From contig CACAXR010000001.1 in the NCBI GenBank assembly GCA_902536555.1, positions 1-64,000 on the forward strand: 64,000 bases of DNA. The letters are read 5' to 3'. The translations under genes and the position numbers were made by a program. The stretch is from an uncultured Prochlorococcus sp. (GTDB taxonomy: Bacteria; Cyanobacteriota; Cyanobacteriia; PCC-6307; Cyanobiaceae). Shown one piece after another: positions 9,154 through 29,993 of the stretch. Every line of letters starts with the position of its first letter. The stretch's first letter is position 1. The notes under the pieces were generated by a model. The model worked only from the letters and a program-made list of their open reading frames with translations, had not been told where the DNA came from and ran no database searches.

Positions 9154-9329
9154 AAATCCTAATTACATTGAATATTAAATAAAATTGTATTTTTATTTAA
9201 GGATTATATCTTATCTCTTAGATTTATATAAGAACATCAATTTTAAATTTTCTCTTTTAAAAATATTTATAAATTAAAAAATTCCTTAAATTCTTTATGA
9301 TATAGTTTTTGTTACACCATAATAGTTTC

Positions 9330-10316
9330 GTGAAAACTTTTTTAATAGCAGAGGCCTGCGATAATCATCTAGGTTCCTTAGAAAACGCGAAAAGATTAGC
9401 AGAAAAATCTAAAAATTCAGGGGCCACAGCTGTTAAATTTCAGCACCATCTACCCGATGAAGAGATGTTGAAAGAAGTACCAACCTCTTCGAATTTTAAT
9501 ATACCTCTTTATGACTTTCTCAAGAAATATTCATTAACTTTAGATGAACATTATGCTTTAAAAGAATTTTGTGACTTCATTGAGATTGAATATATGTGCA
9601 CTCCATTTAGCTTGAAAGCAGCAATTGAAATTAATCCCTTGGTAAGAAGATTTAAAATTGGATCAGGAGAATTTACAGATATACCAAGCTTAATTGAAAT
9701 TGCAAAATTTAAAAAACAAATGATTCTATCAACTGGTATGTCATCTTTAGAAGAGATAGAGATGGTTTACAGTAAACTTAAAAATCATACTGATCAATTG
9801 TGTTTTCTGAATTGCGTTAGTGAATACCCACCTGTATTTGAAGATATAAATTTAAAAGTAATTCCATTATTAATTAAAAAATATCCCGATGTCATAATTG
9901 GTCATTCAGACCATACACCAAGTATTGAAACATCTCTAGCTGCAATTACATTAGGTGCAAAAATAATAGAGAAACATGTAACACTTGATAAAAAAATTCC
10001 ATGCCCTGACCAATCTGTTTCAATAGATTTTGATGAATTTCAATTATTATCTAAATACATAAACAATATTGAAAAAGCTCTTGGTGGTAATAAAACTGTT
10101 CACGAAAAAGAAATCGCAATAAGATCTTGGGCAAGAAGGAGTCTCGTAACAATAAAAGATATAAAAAAAGGAGAAATTTTATCAAAAAAAAATATTTGGT
10201 CCAAGCGTCCTGGGACAGGTATACCTTCTTATCTTATGGATGAATATATAGGGAAACTAGCTATTGTTGATATCCCAAAAGATACAATCATTGAAACAAA
10301 TATGTTAATTAATTAA
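9330..10316 (+). CDS. neuB: N-acetylneuraminate synthase family protein (NeuB/SpsE) with C-terminal SAF domain
   Basis: FLIAEACDNHLGSLENAKRL, KIGSGEFTDIP, ILSTGMSSLEEIE, CVSEYPP, GHSDHTPSIETSLAAITLGAKIIEKHVTLDK; GTG start at 9330 preferred over the listed 9309. Confidence 0.93.
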   Translation: MKTFLIAEACDNHLGSLENAKRLAEKSKNSGATAVKFQHHLPDEEMLKEVPTSSNFNIPLYDFLKKYSLTLDEHYALKEFCDFIEIEYMCTPFSLKAAIEINPLVRRFKIGSGEFTDIPSLIEIAKFKKQMILSTGMSSLEEIEMVYSKLKNHTDQLCFLNCVSEYPPVFEDINLKVIPLLIKKYPDVIIGHSDHTPSIETSLAAITLGAKIIEKHVTLDKKIPCPDQSVSIDFDEFQLLSKYINNIEKALGGNKTVHEKEIAIRSWARRSLVTIKDIKKGEILSKKNIWSKRPGTGIPSYLMDEYIGKLAIVDIPKDTIIETNMLIN

Positions 10317-11450
10317 ATGAAAATATTATTTGTATTAGGTTCAAGAGGAGAATGGGGATACATAAAACCTTTAATAAAAGAATTAATAAAAAATAATATT
10401 AATTATGGAATATGCGCAACTAATATGATTCTTCTTAAAGAGAATGGCTCTTTAATAAATGAAATAGAAAGTGAGGGTTTTAATGTTACAAGTAAAATTC
10501 TAATGTCTCTTGAAGGTTCTACAAATATGGCTATGGCAAAGTCTATAGGACTTTTTACTGCAGGTTTTGTAGATGTACTTCTTCAAGAGAAGCCAACATG
10601 GACAATATTAGCTGGAGACAGAGGTGAACAATTAGCTGCTGCTATTGCATGTTCTTATTCATATATACCCTGTGCACACATACAAGCAGGAGAAAGGTCT
10701 GGGAATATAGATGGTGTAGCGAGGCATGCAATTGGTAAATTAGTACATCTTCATTTCGCATCAAATAAAGAGGCTGCAGACCGATTACTTAGATTAGGTG
10801 AGCAAAGTTTTAGAATTCATAATGTAGGTGCGCCTCAATTGGATGAAATCCAGCAAGAATATATTCCAAGCCTTAAAGAAATAAATAAAAATCTCAATTC
10901 AACTATTAATGAAAATTTTCTTTTGGTAGTTCAACACCCAGTAACAGAAAAACTGATATTTGCTGGTGAAAATACAGAAATACTTTTTGATGCTTTAGAT
11001 AATTTTAATATGCAAAAGGTTATTATTTTGCCTAATAATGATGCAGGTGCTTCAATTGTTAGAGCTAAGATTAGAGAAAAAAGAAAAACTAATATGTTTA
11101 TATATTCAAATTTAAGAAGATCTATTTATTTAGGCCTTTTGAAAAATTGCAAATGCATAGTTGGTAATTCTTCTTCGGGCATAATAGAGGCTCCTAGTTT
11201 TAACACTCCATCTTTAAACTTAGGAACACGACAAAAAGATAGAGTTCAGGGTGATAATGTTATAAATCAAGACTATAATCTTGAATCAATAATATCATCT
11301 ATCAAAAAAGCAATTTCAAAGGAATTCAAAAATTCAATGAAAAGCTCCTCTAATCCTTATGGAGATGGAAAGTCATCAAAAAGAATATTAGACATAATGC
11401 TATCAACCAAAATAAATGATAGGCTTCTGATTAAAGGGATTACTTCATAA
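10317..11450 (+). CDS. neuC: UDP-N-acetylglucosamine 2-epimerase (NeuC-type)
   Basis: GSRGEWGYIKPLIKEL, LAGDRGEQLAAAIACSYSYIPCAHIQAGERSG, VGNSSSGIIEAPSF. Confidence 0.92.
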   Translation: MKILFVLGSRGEWGYIKPLIKELIKNNINYGICATNMILLKENGSLINEIESEGFNVTSKILMSLEGSTNMAMAKSIGLFTAGFVDVLLQEKPTWTILAGDRGEQLAAAIACSYSYIPCAHIQAGERSGNIDGVARHAIGKLVHLHFASNKEAADRLLRLGEQSFRIHNVGAPQLDEIQQEYIPSLKEINKNLNSTINENFLLVVQHPVTEKLIFAGENTEILFDALDNFNMQKVIILPNNDAGASIVRAKIREKRKTNMFIYSNLRRSIYLGLLKNCKCIVGNSSSGIIEAPSFNTPSLNLGTRQKDRVQGDNVINQDYNLESIISSIKKAISKEFKNSMKSSSNPYGDGKSSKRILDIMLSTKINDRLLIKGITS

Positions 11451-11806
11451 TGTCGAAAATTAGTAATTATCTGCTTCCACTAGACTCAACTATCTTAGAA
11501 GCAGCAAATATAATAAACTCATCAAAAAACAGAGCTTGCGTTGTTGTGCAAGATGATAATCATGTTATAGGAATTATTTCAGAGGGTGATATTTTAAGAG
11601 CTATTCTCAACGATGCTAATCTTAAATCTAGTATAAAACCATTTATTAATACAAATTTCTTCTTTTTATCTCATGGTGAAGAAAGTAGTGAACAAATAAA
11701 AGATTTTTTTCATATTAAACAAGTTACCCTAATACCAATAATCACCAAAGATATGAAACTTAAGGATATAATTACACTAAATGATTATTTAAAATCATTA
11801 AATTAA
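11450..11806 (+). CDS. Stand-alone CBS-domain protein
   Basis: STILEAANIINSSKNRACVVVQDDNHVIGIISEGDILRAIL; second CBS half VTLIPIITKDMKLKDIITLNDYL. Confidence 0.85.
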   Translation: MSKISNYLLPLDSTILEAANIINSSKNRACVVVQDDNHVIGIISEGDILRAILNDANLKSSIKPFINTNFFFLSHGEESSEQIKDFFHIKQVTLIPIITKDMKLKDIITLNDYLKSLN

Positions 11807-11819
11807 TAAATTAAATTTT

Positions 11820-12512
11820 TTACTGCATCTTTAATTTTGAATCAAAAAGAAAGTTTGCATAAATCAAATCATCATATGTATTTATATCAATAGCTTCCTT
11901 TTGGTCAATAATATAAGCTAACCATTTATCACATACAAGTGAATTAGTTTTCAGCAAAAAATCAATCTTAACGACATAAACTGTGCTACTTTCTACAAAC
12001 AAAGATTCCCTTTCTTGTCTGCGTCGTGGTTGATTCTTTATAAGTGGTTTGTAATTAAAAAAACTATCAATTAGACCAATACATGCTTTAGTTTCATAAA
12101 CAGTTAGAAGAGATTTCCTATCTTCATCAATTATTTTTTTTATACAATCATCTATTGTCTTAGTCTTACGAAAAGGTGAGGTAGGTTCTAGAACTACTAA
12201 ATAATCATAAGTTAATCCTATCTTTAAAAGTTCCTTAATTGCATGAATCAAACATTCTTCAGTTTTAGAACTATCTAATGAAATTTCAAAAGGTCTTTTA
12301 ATTGTTTTAGAACCATTCAATTCAGCAATATTAATTATTTCTTCATCATCAGTTGAAACGAAAAAATCAGTGATTAATTCTGATTCTTTAGCCTGCTTAA
12401 TAGTATGGAAGATTAAAGGTTCCCCTCCTAATGCTTTGATATTTTTTTTTGGTATTCCTTTTGATCCTCCTCTTGCTGGGATAATAGCTAAGATTTTCTC
12501 TTTTTTATACAT
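11820..12512 (-). CDS. neuA: Acylneuraminate cytidylyltransferase
   Basis: ILAIIPARGGSKGIPKKNIKALGGEPLIFHTI signature; LEPTSPFRKTKTIDDCI. Confidence 0.93.
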   Translation of the reverse strand: MYKKEKILAIIPARGGSKGIPKKNIKALGGEPLIFHTIKQAKESELITDFFVSTDDEEIINIAELNGSKTIKRPFEISLDSSKTEECLIHAIKELLKIGLTYDYLVVLEPTSPFRKTKTIDDCIKKIIDEDRKSLLTVYETKACIGLIDSFFNYKPLIKNQPRRRQERESLFVESSTVYVVKIDFLLKTNSLVCDKWLAYIIDQKEAIDINTYDDLIYANFLFDSKLKMQ

Positions 12513-15442: not shown

Positions 15443-15483
15443 GGTGTAATAGATCAGTTGTTAGAGCACCTGTATGGCATTCA
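15443..15483 (+). other. Degenerate 5' half of tRNA-Ala (positions about 1-41)
   Basis: Ungapped alignment to the intact tRNA at 15658 (my count 33/41 identical): ggtgtaatagatcagttgttagagcacctgtatggcattca; the upstream 'tttattgatat' is also shared with the intact copy. Confidence 0.7.
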
Positions 15484-15657
15484 ACTCTCAAAAGCCTTTA
15501 ATCTTAATCTATATTAGGGTTTGTATCAGTAATATTAAAGTTCAGGAGCAGAGCTAGATTCAGATCTTAACAATCAAACCTTATAAAGTACTATAGGTAT
15601 TAGATACGTCTGAAAGAAATCTTTGGATTTATTGATATAGGTGACGTTTCGAGATTT

Positions 15658-15730
15658 GGGGCCATAGCTCAGCTGGTAGAGCACCTGCATGGCATGCAGG
15701 GGGTCAGGAGTTCGAATCTCCTTGGCTCCA
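15658..15730 (+). tRNA. tRNA-Ala (GGC anticodon)
   Basis: GGGGCCATAGCTCAGCTGGTAGAGCACCTGCATGGCATGCAGGGGGTCAGGAGTTCGAATCTCCTTGGCTCCA: paired acceptor stem, anticodon stem CCTGC/GCAGG, T-arm AGGAGTTCGAATCTCCT. Confidence 0.97.
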
Positions 15731-15900
15731 TTGAATTTTATTAGTGATAGCAATAGATTCAGGCGATTCTCACAAATCTAATGATTAGGCTGATATAGGT
15801 TGATAGTTGACGATATAGCTAAATTCCGCAATAATTTTCGCAATGTGATTATTAATGAAAGTTTAGTTATAGCAAAAATCTCAATTGGATCAAAAAATAT

Positions 15901-15992
15901 AGGGCCGATATTAGCGTCGATTTTGGAATAGGGAGGCTTTTAAGGGGTTTAGTAGAGGTCAAAAGTAATATGGTTATGCAAATAGAAAAAAA
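15901..15992 (+). repeat. Direct repeat copy A (~90 bp, imperfect)
   Basis: agggccgatattagcgtcgattttggaatagggaggcttttaaggggtttag...tatgcaaatagaaaaaa, homologous to 23179-23268. Confidence 0.75.
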
Positions 15993-16186
15993 TGATTTAA
16001 TAAAAAATTTGTTTTTTTTAATTCTAGATTAATTTTTATTTAAAAATATTTTTAAATTAATGATATTTAAAGTAAGCTTTCAATAAATTACTAAATTATG
16101 ATTTAATCTTAAATAAAAAGATTTCAAAAATTCCTTTCTTTTGAACAAAATTATAAAAAATATAACTACTTTTAAAAACTAATTTT

Positions 16187-16993
16187 ATGATAAAAGATTT
16201 AGAAGATAAAAATTTCGATATTGAAAAATGCGTTAATTCTTTAAATGATAATGGATATTTAATTTTGAAAAATCTTATTTCTTTAGAAGAAGTAAAAAAT
16301 GTTCAAAAATACATTGATAGTTTAAGTATAGGTCCAAAAGAAAGAATAACTTCCGATAATCATCCCTTTTTATTAGAAATTTCAAATAATAAAAAGGTTT
16401 TAAAAATAGCAAGTGCTTTTTTTAAAGAGAATGCAGCTCCCGTTCAAGGACTCTTATTTAAATATCCTACTCAACAAGAAATTCATCAAGATACAGTTCA
16501 TTTTTCAACCTTTCCAAGAGATCTTATGTTAGCAGCCTGGGTAGCATTAGAAGATATTACGATCGATAATGGGCCACTTGAATATATCCAAAATTCGCAT
16601 TTAATACCTTCTTTTTCTCATTATGAATTTCCATCAAGACATACCAATAGAAATAAAAATAATAAAAATTATAATAAGCAATACGTGAAAGAAATATCTC
16701 AATTAATTGAAAAATTAAGGCTGAAAAAATCATTTTTTCTTGCAAAAGCAGGAGATTGCTTTATGTGGCATCCAAGATTAATGCATGGAGGAAATCAAAC
16801 CCCCAAAGAAGAACTCACTAGATACTCATATGTAACTCACTATATGGCTACCAAAACCCCTATTTACTTTAAACATTTTGGAGGTTTCAACTTTATACCA
16901 AGACTGCAATCACCAAAAAATATTAATAATCGAAAAAAACTTTATAAATTTGGCGCTATATCAATGATAAAAAGATTAATAAAATTACTTTAA
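16187..16993 (+). CDS. Phytanoyl-CoA dioxygenase (PhyH) family protein
   Basis: NGYLILKNLISLEEV; HQDTVHFSTFPRDLMLAAWVALEDITIDNGPLEYIQNSHL; WHPRLMHGGNQT. Confidence 0.88.
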   Translation: MIKDLEDKNFDIEKCVNSLNDNGYLILKNLISLEEVKNVQKYIDSLSIGPKERITSDNHPFLLEISNNKKVLKIASAFFKENAAPVQGLLFKYPTQQEIHQDTVHFSTFPRDLMLAAWVALEDITIDNGPLEYIQNSHLIPSFSHYEFPSRHTNRNKNNKNYNKQYVKEISQLIEKLRLKKSFFLAKAGDCFMWHPRLMHGGNQTPKEELTRYSYVTHYMATKTPIYFKHFGGFNFIPRLQSPKNINNRKKLYKFGAISMIKRLIKLL

Positions 16994-17219
16994 GTATTTT
17001 TATTTAAAAAAACTTAAAAGATGAAAACAAATTTTTTGGGAACCTTTCATAGAGAATCTTTTTATTATGTCCCTATTAATTTTTTCTAGCCTTAAGTTTT
17101 GTCTTTAATAAGGTGTTATCATATACTCTGTCAAGTTCTCGCACTAATTTTTGCAATTTACATTTAGTTATAAGCTCTAACGCGTTTTATAGTAATGGAA
17201 CTGACCTGTTTTAGCCCTT

Positions 17220-17262
17220 CATGGCATGCAGGGGGTCAGCGGTTCAAATCCGCTTGGCTCCA
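17220..17262 (+). other. 3' fragment of a tRNA-Ala (positions 31-73) with a different, internally compensated T-stem
   Basis: catggcatgcagggggtcagcggttcaaatccgcttggctcca versus 15688-15730 (my count 38/43); T-stem AGCGG/CCGCT still pairs. Confidence 0.85.
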
Positions 17263-17428
17263 CTTAATTTTTTTCATTAATACCAATAGTTTTCAGACAT
17301 AGTTTAGTAATAACATAACTTTTGTAACTAATTGTCCAAGCTTGTTTGTACGTTTCTGCTCTCTAAAATGCACTTATATTAAAAAATTTTATTAAATATG
17401 TTATTTTAAAATATTATGTTTTTTTGAA

Positions 17429-18118
17429 ATGAAACGTTTTATTCATGATGAACAACCTCAAGAATTTTACGATTCCTTCAATAGTTTTATTATTTCAAGC
17501 GATTTAAAATTATTTTCCAAGTTATATTCTAAGTTTAAGTTAGTAGAATTAGTTAAAGATATACCTGGAGACATTGTTGAGTTAGGAGTTTTTAAAGGTT
17601 CTGGATTATTCGCATGGTTAAAAATTAATGCTTTATGTAATATAAATTCTAAAAAGGTTTATGGATTTGACGCTTTTGACATAGACCAAGTTTTATCTAA
17701 TCTTGATGGAATGCAGAGGGACATGATGTCCAATTTATTTTCCCAAAGATCTTTCAAACCTAATGATACATCTATTAATTATTTTTCATTTTTAGAGGCA
17801 ACTTTAGAAAAATGTGGATTTCAAAATTGTCATCTAATAAAAGGTGATGTGTTAGATACTATTCCTAAATTTGTAAAATCAAATCCTGGATTTAGAGCAA
17901 GTATTGTAAACTTTGATCTAGATAATGATAAGCCAACTTTTAAATGTTTAGAGTCTCTATGGGATCGAATAACACCTGGTGGGATTGCTATTTTTGATGA
18001 ATATGCTGTTAATCAGTGGGATGAAAGCAATGCTGTCGATAGATTTTTAAAAAATAAAGATATTAAACTTATATCTACGGGTTTCCAAGCTCCTACTGCT
18101 TATTTAATAAAAAATTAA
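17429..18118 (+). CDS. TylF/MycF-like (macrocin O-methyltransferase) family methyltransferase
   Basis: IPGDIVELGVFKGSGLFAWLKI...VYGFDAFD...INFDLDNDKPTFKCLESLWDRITPGGIAIFDEYAVNQWDE. Confidence 0.85.
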   Translation: MKRFIHDEQPQEFYDSFNSFIISSDLKLFSKLYSKFKLVELVKDIPGDIVELGVFKGSGLFAWLKINALCNINSKKVYGFDAFDIDQVLSNLDGMQRDMMSNLFSQRSFKPNDTSINYFSFLEATLEKCGFQNCHLIKGDVLDTIPKFVKSNPGFRASIVNFDLDNDKPTFKCLESLWDRITPGGIAIFDEYAVNQWDESNAVDRFLKNKDIKLISTGFQAPTAYLIKN

Positions 18119-18300
18119 ATCGTAGGATTAATAAATTATTTTGCTTTATGCATAAACTTATATTAATTAACTTCAATAATGAAAATGATATTTAGAAGTT
18201 CGTTTTTAAATTAGGTTATTTATTAATATTAAAATTTGAATTCATAGACTCTTTTAACTTTTGTAGAGTCTTAAAACCACCTTTATTTGAATATTTTTTG

Positions 18301-18342
18301 TATGGAATGCAGTAAGTCAAGTGTTCGAGTATGCTTTCTTGA
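18301..18342 (+). other. Strongly degenerate tRNA-Ala 3' fragment
   Basis: tatggaatgcagtaagtcaagtgttcgagtatgctttcttga aligned ungapped to tRNA positions 31-72 (my count 27/42), with ATGG-ATGCAG and GTTCGA kept. Confidence 0.5.
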
Positions 18343-29375: not shown

Positions 29376-29993
29376 TTAAATTTTCCTCCAAACTGCTAAT
29401 AATTTTCCTTGTATTGAAACTTGATCTAAATCTAATACTATTGGTTGATAATTTGGATTTGCAGCCTCTAAAAAAATTTTCCCATTTCTTTTAAAGAAAT
29501 ATTTTAAAGTTGTCCCTAATCCAGGGACAAGAGCACTTACTATCGTTCCATTTCTCAAAGAGTAACTGTCAGTAATTGGCTCCATTAAGACCATATCTCC
29601 ATCTGCGATACATGCGTCTATCATAGAATCTCCATTAACTGTAAGAGCAAAAACATTTTTCTTTTTTAAAACATCAGAAATATCTAAATTCTCTTGAACA
29701 TCAGAGTAAGTTTCAATTAAACCTCCAGCTGCGACTGAACCCATAATTGGTACACCTTCTATAATTTCATCAACTATTTGCATTGTTCTTGCTTTACCTT
29801 CTTGCCAAGAAATGTAGCCTTTTTCTTGCAAATGTTTTAAGCGACTTTGAATTGGAGCAGGAGATTTTAATCCCATAGCTTGCATCATTTGTCTGATGGA
29901 TGGGCTATGTTGAAAGTCTTTCATATATTCTTTTATCCATCCATAGAGCTCATTCTGAGCTTGGGTAAGATCGTCCCCTGAAGAATTTTGCAT
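29376..29993 (-). CDS. lexA: LexA repressor
   Basis: SPSIRQMMQAMGLKSPAPIQSRLKHLQEKGYI; GSVAAGGLIETYSD; VNGDSMIDACIADGDMVLME; S24-type layout. Confidence 0.95.
   Translation of the reverse strand: MQNSSGDDLTQAQNELYGWIKEYMKDFQHSPSIRQMMQAMGLKSPAPIQSRLKHLQEKGYISWQEGKARTMQIVDEIIEGVPIMGSVAAGGLIETYSDVQENLDISDVLKKKNVFALTVNGDSMIDACIADGDMVLMEPITDSYSLRNGTIVSALVPGLGTTLKYFFKRNGKIFLEAANPNYQPIVLDLDQVSIQGKLLAVWRKI

What the first reader, a model, noticed from the sequence alone, without database searches (positions are those of the whole stretch)
15443..18342. tRNA-Ala plus three partial tRNA-Ala remnants delimiting single cargo genes
Seen: a degenerate 5' half (15443-15483, tRNA positions 1-41), an intact tRNA-Ala(GGC) (15658-15730), a 3' fragment (17220-17262, positions 31-73) and a decayed 3' fragment (18301-18342). 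Order: intact tRNA / PhyH dioxygenase / 3' fragment / TylF methyltransferase / decayed 3' fragment / NTase-kinase pair. The 5' remnant ends and the 3' remnants begin within the same short overlap (positions about 31-41, the anticodon loop), where tyrosine recombinases often cross over in tRNA attachment sites. Inference: repeated insertions at one tRNA, each bringing about one sugar-tailoring gene. No integrase is visible here, so the element could be mobilised in trans (tycheposon-like) or be a relic.
Basis: partly seen in the sequence, partly recalled or inferred. Interest (0 to 1): 0.8.

Follow-up and report, generated by a model that had tools for sequence, protein, structure and literature searches.

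The report
Stacked mobile gene cassettes at tRNA-Ala
In an ocean cyanobacterium (Prochlorococcus), one tRNA gene has been hit repeatedly by small mobile DNA elements, some carrying a single gene and no integrase of their own, and each hit left a piece of the tRNA behind, so the order of gene arrivals can be read from the sequence.

Summary
All four tRNA-Ala pieces are present and above chance, and comparison with about 60 Prochlorococcus loci shows they are attachment-site scars. Each of the three clear junctions joins a conserved element end.

The PhyH unit (core to core 1,532 bp) has both ends of one element type, with paired 12-bp arm repeats at +97 bp from the tRNA and -77 bp from the displaced half, and no integrase. 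The TylF unit starts with an end 90% identical to that of an integrase-bearing element. The 5' remnant belongs to a third element of opposite polarity, reduced to its two ends.

Relatives supply empty sites (lexA-tRNA), occupied sites, and complete integrase-bearing elements of both polarities. The displaced 3' half next to PhyH is an undecayed copy of a different functional allele, so that insertion is recent although integrase-less.

Across the genus, short one-gene units with pristine scars and no integrase are common. I read the site as a tycheposon-type tRNA hotspot with non-autonomous single-gene cassettes. Repeated integration is well supported; mobilisation in trans is inferred (about 0.55), against decay after integration.

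The parts
15443..15483 (+). Old tRNA-Ala 5' half (positions 1-41), scar of the 5'-type element E3
   Evidence: 35/41 identical to the intact gene; pristine counterparts in G106, G071, G132, G102
15484..15587 (+). Outer end (arm) of E3
   Evidence: 84/96 identical to the arm after the 5' half in G106; match to G071 runs to 15587
15561..15657 (+). Integrase-side end of E3, now the upstream region of the intact tRNA; nothing lies between the two ends
   Evidence: 76/91 identical to the sequence between integrase and tRNA in G106; matches in many loci start at 15556-15561
15658..15730 (+). Intact tRNA-Ala(GGC), attachment site; core CATGGCATGCA at 15688
15731..15996 (+). Left end of element E1, with 12-bp paired arm repeat at 15827
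   Evidence: 97/100 to G092, 93/97 to G082; 88% over 341 bp with G092; repeat
16187..16993 (+). PhyH-family dioxygenase gene, sole cargo of E1
   Evidence: Pfam PhyH 2.8e-22; relatives at E <= 1e-15 in only 4 of 265 other genomes
17119..17219 (+). Right arm of E1, with 12-bp paired repeat at 17140
   Evidence: 103/118 to G092, 104/118 to G182, 94/108 to G082; repeat
17220..17262 (+). Displaced tRNA-Ala 3' half (positions 31-73), scar of E1; other T-arm allele, no decay
   Evidence: 43/43 identical to a functional allele of relatives, 5 T-arm differences from the resident gene
17263..17393 (+). Left end of element E2, with arm repeat at 17357
   Evidence: 90/100 to the integrase-bearing element of G207, 84/100 to G119
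17429..18118 (+). TylF-family methyltransferase gene, probable cargo of E2
   Evidence: Pfam TylF 3.7e-10
18299..18336 (+). Decayed tRNA-Ala 3' half, probable scar of E2
   Evidence: Score 18 against shuffled maximum 13; no recognisable arm
29376..29993 (-). lexA, the core gene next to the native tRNA-Ala site in relatives

Best explanation
The locus is a stack of site-specific insertions at tRNA-Ala(GGC) by tycheposon-like elements that use lambda-type tyrosine recombinases. The crossover lies in the anticodon arm, whose sequence TGCATG-G-CATGCA is almost palindromic. A 3'-type element carries a tRNA 3' half: it rebuilds the tRNA and pushes the old 3' half downstream. A 5'-type element carries a 5' half and leaves the old 5' half upstream. 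The window records at least three insertions: E3 (5'-type, only its ends left), E2 (3'-type, TylF) and E1 (3'-type, PhyH), the most recent. Shown: the scars, the conserved ends and arm repeats, empty and occupied sites, integrases with matching ends in relatives, and allele replacement. Inferred: that E1 and similar one-gene units moved without their own integrase, served in trans by integrases of full-length elements at the same site (about 0.55), and that the cargo alters the cell surface.
For: Remnants above chance and recurrent in the genus with fixed polarity. Conserved element ends at every clear junction of the window: E1 97/100 and 103/118, E2 90/100 to an integrase element, E3 84/96 and 76/91. 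Paired 12-bp repeats at fixed distances on both sides of PhyH. Empty sites in G041, G083, G115 and occupied sites in G132, G088 with the same lexA flank. Complete elements with integrase, AAA and MerR-like proteins in both polarities: G088, G106 (5'), G207 (3'), and G119 (3') with integrase and MerR-like protein; integrases of the two polarities 49-57% identical. T-arm with 8 alleles against 1 for the anticodon arm in 48 genes, and 22 of 28 displaced halves differing from the resident T-arm. Short tRNA-adjacent units: 17 of 18 lack a full integrase; 10 of the 11 with near-pristine scars lack it.
Against: No integrase, circle or attP was seen for the window's own units, and the genome is only 58% complete. 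The right end of E2 is decayed. No helper is identified for the commonest short class (CTGCGASC arms). Partly decayed elements exist (G092, G081, G071), so loss after integration also happens. The same one-gene unit was not found twice in different strains.
Confidence: 0.87

Rival explanations
1. Relic reading: each unit arrived as a full integrase-bearing element, lost its mobility genes by deletion after integration, and selection kept the useful cargo gene. The one-gene units are then cis-mobilizable relics (CIME-like), not moving cassettes.
For: Decay intermediates exist: G071 has a broken integrase in an otherwise G106-like element, and G092 and G081 keep integrase pieces. E3 in the window is plainly a deletion relic. 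Decay to CIMEs followed by accretion is the described route (PMC5704250).
Against: Ten short units without integrase have displaced halves with at most one change in 43, so deletion would have had to be almost immediate each time; the length distribution is two-peaked; both arm repeats are kept at fixed positions.
Confidence: 0.4
2. The genes arrived by homologous recombination within the surface island, and the tRNA pieces are bystanders copied with the flanks.
For: A related PhyH (54%) lies in the island of G033 with no tRNA half found nearby. The island varies strongly, and the tRNA is flipped relative to lexA in 10 of 44 genomes (by coordinates).
Against: Does not account for ends and arm repeats at fixed distances on both sides of single genes, nor for the allele differences between intact and displaced halves.
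Confidence: 0.08
3. The remnants are chance similarity in AT-rich sequence.
For: Only the 18299-18336 piece is weak and lacks an arm.
Against: All pieces exceed the maximum of 200 shuffles, and the three others match the junctions of relatives closely.
Confidence: 0.01

Closest known systems
Tycheposons of Prochlorococcus (Hackl et al. 2023; paper not held, known here from memory and through PMC10872708)
   Same: tRNA target, tyrosine recombinase beside the rebuilt tRNA, partial tRNA at the far end, nutrient cargo (the phosphonate genes of G106)
   Different: The window's units are 0.2-1.5 kb without integrase; both polarities occur at one tRNA; described size range is 4-200 kb
CIMEs (cis-mobilizable elements) and tandem accretion (PMC5704250)
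   Same: Units with both attachment sites but no integrase, stacked at one site
   Different: One gene each, arm repeats at fixed positions, near-pristine scars, recurrence across a genus; no conjugation genes seen
tRNA-gene islands as in the Islander database (PMC4383910)
   Same: Rebuilt tRNA plus displaced fragment, anticodon-loop crossover
   Different: Islander needs an integrase and at least 2 kb; it lists 3760 islands with 3' fragments but only 159 with 5' fragments, and only 4 tandems of three or more
Integron gene cassettes
   Same: Analogy only: single genes gathered in series at one site, possibly by a tyrosine recombinase acting in trans
   Different: The site is a tRNA gene, the units carry tRNA halves and arm repeats, and no integron integrase or attC site was seen or searched for

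Membership tests
Tycheposon | Full tRNA at one end and partial tRNA at the other | tested here: met
   E1: intact tRNA and 43/43 displaced half
Tycheposon | Own tyrosine recombinase | tested here: not met
   None in E1-E3 or elsewhere in the held part of the genome; met in G207, G119, G106, G088
Tycheposon | Size 4-200 kb | tested here: not met
   E1 is 1,532 bp core to core; size range from PMC10872708
Tycheposon | tRNA-Ala(GGC) among the seven tRNAs described | not testable with these tools
   Primary paper not held
CIME | Both attachment sites kept, integration genes absent | tested here: met
   E1: both ends with arm repeats, no integrase
CIME | Derived by decay of an integrative element | tested here: inconclusive
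   Ends shared with the 7.6-kb G092 element that has integrase pieces, but the pristine scar argues against slow decay
CIME | Mobilised by an element at the same site | not tested
   Needs a bench assay or sequences of excised forms
Islander-type tRNA island | Fragment in the correct orientation and configuration to the tRNA | tested here: met
   3' pieces downstream and 5' piece upstream on the same strand
Islander-type tRNA island | Integrase inside and at least 2 kb long | tested here: not met
   criteria from PMC4383910

The most novel reading that the evidence does not exclude
Prochlorococcus holds a family of integrase-less, mostly one-gene cassettes (about 0.6-1.6 kb), bounded by paired 12-bp arm repeats at fixed distances, that enter tRNA-Ala(GGC) through integrases supplied in trans and add tailoring genes to the surface island one at a time: a tRNA-based counterpart of gene cassettes, with the displaced tRNA halves as a record of order and relative age.
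Probability: 0.45. Interest if true: 0.85.

Novelty: new variant of a known kind. Interest (0 to 1): 0.7.

Why it matters
Gene turnover in the surface-polysaccharide island of Prochlorococcus has been linked to phage resistance (from memory), but how single genes enter is mostly unknown. This locus offers a concrete route, one gene per insertion at a defined site, and a way to read it: displaced tRNA halves and their T-arm alleles give order and relative age. It shows one tRNA used in both polarities by related integrases; the 5' polarity replaces the tRNA's upstream region, which reviews describe as rare (PMC8371274, PMC4383910). Units under 2 kb without integrase escape standard island finders, so such cassettes may be overlooked elsewhere.

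Tried and rejected
A tRNA-splitting model, in which one element with a complete rescue tRNA leaves both halves at its two ends, was rejected for the window: the 5' and 3' scars carry ends of different element types and differ in decay. The arm before the decayed piece was compared with four arm families and not recognised. A helper for the CTGCGASC class was sought in 265 genomes: 24 sites in 16 genomes, 23 beside a tRNA-Ala half by coordinates, none with the reversed control pattern; only G111 has such an arm and an integrase in one unit, and its integrase has no close relative in the set. The G207 integrase has no match in phage records. Scans of viral contigs for attP got no answer from the machine. 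The primary tycheposon paper is not held. Other Rfam hits in this stretch are weak or reflect the fragment itself. Mirror homology between the ends of the two polarities is suggestive only (z 0.8 to 5.5).

Full report
Check of the observation. The intact tRNA-Ala(GGC) lies at 15658-15730. The three remnants score 25, 38 and 18 in local alignment; the best score in 200 shuffled 5-kb sequences is 13. Only the last, 18299-18336, is weak. The genome is a 58%-complete draft. The genus set contains genomes whose exact sizes match, from memory, MED4, MIT9301, MIT9312, MIT9215, MIT9515 and AS9601, so this is Prochlorococcus.

Genus-wide pattern. In 48 near-complete relatives and further drafts the same remnants recur: 3' halves lie downstream of the intact tRNA and 5' halves upstream, almost always on the same strand (G183 is an exception). 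Up to three 3' halves follow one tRNA (G021). Each half is joined to conserved non-tRNA sequence, the element side of an attachment site. Four main arm families precede 3' halves, and one main family follows 5' halves.

Empty and occupied sites. In G041, G083 and G115 the tRNA follows lexA after about 66 bp. In G132 and G088 the same lexA flank runs into the 5' half and then into the element arm. In G088 the element is complete: 5' half, small proteins, AAA ATPase, MerR-like protein, 431-aa integrase, intact tRNA. G106 has a 12.9-kb element of this 5'-type with a 439-aa integrase next to the tRNA and phosphonate cargo (PhnC, a PhnD-like binding protein, PhnE, and matches to methylphosphonate hydroxylase and hydroxymethylphosphonate dioxygenase). 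G207 and G119 have mirrored 3'-type elements with 429-430-aa integrases. Integrases of the two polarities are 49-57% identical. By coordinates, 11 genomes have such an integrase within 0.2 kb of this tRNA, and G119 has one on each side.

Reading of the window. E1: the intact tRNA is followed by an end 97/100 identical to that of G092 and 93/97 to that of G082; then PhyH; then an arm 103/118 identical to G092; then the displaced 3' half. Both E1 ends carry the paired repeat CGCA-N8-YGCA, at +97 and -77; in 64 kb this pattern occurs on this strand only at these two places. E2: the displaced half is followed by an end 90/100 identical to the integrase element of G207, then TylF, then the decayed half. 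E3: the 5' half is followed by about 104 bp matching the outer end of G106 and, slightly overlapping it, about 97 bp matching the integrase-side end of G106, then the intact tRNA; only the two ends are left. A still older 5'-type end may precede the 5' half (z about 3 to 6).

Allele replacement. In 48 intact genes the anticodon arm has one sequence and the T-arm eight, with paired stem changes. Of 28 displaced halves, 22 differ from the resident T-arm. In the window the displaced half differs at five T-arm positions from the intact gene, yet is identical over positions 31-73 to a functional allele elsewhere. It therefore came from the previous resident gene and has not decayed: E1 is recent. 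The 5' half of E3 (35/41) and the decayed 3' half look older.

Relic or moving cassette. Of 18 units directly after the tRNA and under 3 kb, one (G111) has a full integrase; 11 of the 18 have scars with at most one change, and 10 of those lack an integrase. Of six units over 6 kb, five have integrase matches, three of them full length. The sample was chosen for having fragments, so these are not frequencies in nature. Units with CTGCGASC arms share a layout: an arm pair 86-109 bp after the tRNA, usually one gene, and an arm pair 67 bp before the displaced half. The exact pattern occurs at 24 sites in 16 of 265 genomes and nowhere in the reversed control; by coordinates 23 of 24 lie beside a tRNA-Ala 3' half. 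Cargo of short units includes FkbM-type methyltransferases in at least five genomes, a GDSL esterase and a sulfotransferase. Four of the FkbM proteins are only 26-32% alike where they align, so these are separate acquisitions. This favours units that arrive small but does not prove it; decay intermediates also exist.

Literature. Islander lists 3760 islands with 3' fragments and 159 with 5' fragments, and rejects units under 2 kb or without integrase (PMC4383910). Decay to CIMEs followed by accretion is the described route to integrase-less tandem units (PMC5704250). Tycheposons are described as 4-200 kb and tied to seven tRNA genes (PMC10872708). An archaeal review notes the resemblance of anticodon arms to integrase core sites and that rebuilt bacterial tRNA genes nearly always keep their own promoter (PMC8371274); the 5'-type insertions here do not.

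Verdict. Site-specific stacking at tRNA-Ala is well supported. Whether E1-type units move in trans or are relics is open, with a modest lean to mobilisation in trans. The small, one-gene, two-polarity form is a new variant of tRNA-targeting elements as far as the literature at hand shows; the primary tycheposon paper could not be read.

Noticed in passing
window 15658-15730 and 29376-29993; The tRNA is on the opposite strand to lexA here and in nine other genomes, one of them in a single complete contig (G183), of 44 with both on one contig; in all it stays downstream of lexA. Inversion through the near-palindromic core is one idea; a chimeric draft is possible for the window itself.
   Followed up: partly
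G128 and G002 (L135, L136); Two genomes rated 99% complete show no tRNA-Ala(GGC) match, intact or partial, and G128 has none in the 16 kb after lexA. Either an assembly gap or loss of this tRNA.
   Followed up: partly
G106 (L056) and G071 (L075); Phosphonate transport and oxidation genes travel on a 12.9-kb 5'-type tRNA-Ala element in G106; G071 has a near copy with a broken integrase.
   Followed up: partly
G088 (L082:7113-7329) and G115 (L083:6250-6465); Both have an intact tRNA followed within 100 bp by an arm and a second 3' half, with no room for cargo: cargo-less scars or minimal elements.
   Followed up: no
L064:4928-5323, L082:1864-2250, L056:15690-16037 and others; A small protein with the motif ISRRRARQI recurs near the outer arm of nearly all long elements at this tRNA. 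It has no Pfam or PHROG family above cut-off; an outer-end binding role is a guess.
   Followed up: no
window 9309-12512; A NeuB-type synthase gene (Pfam NeuB) with neighbours that read like a NeuC-type epimerase and a cytidylyltransferase suggests a nonulosonic-acid surface sugar pathway in the same island; only NeuB was tested by profile.
   Followed up: no
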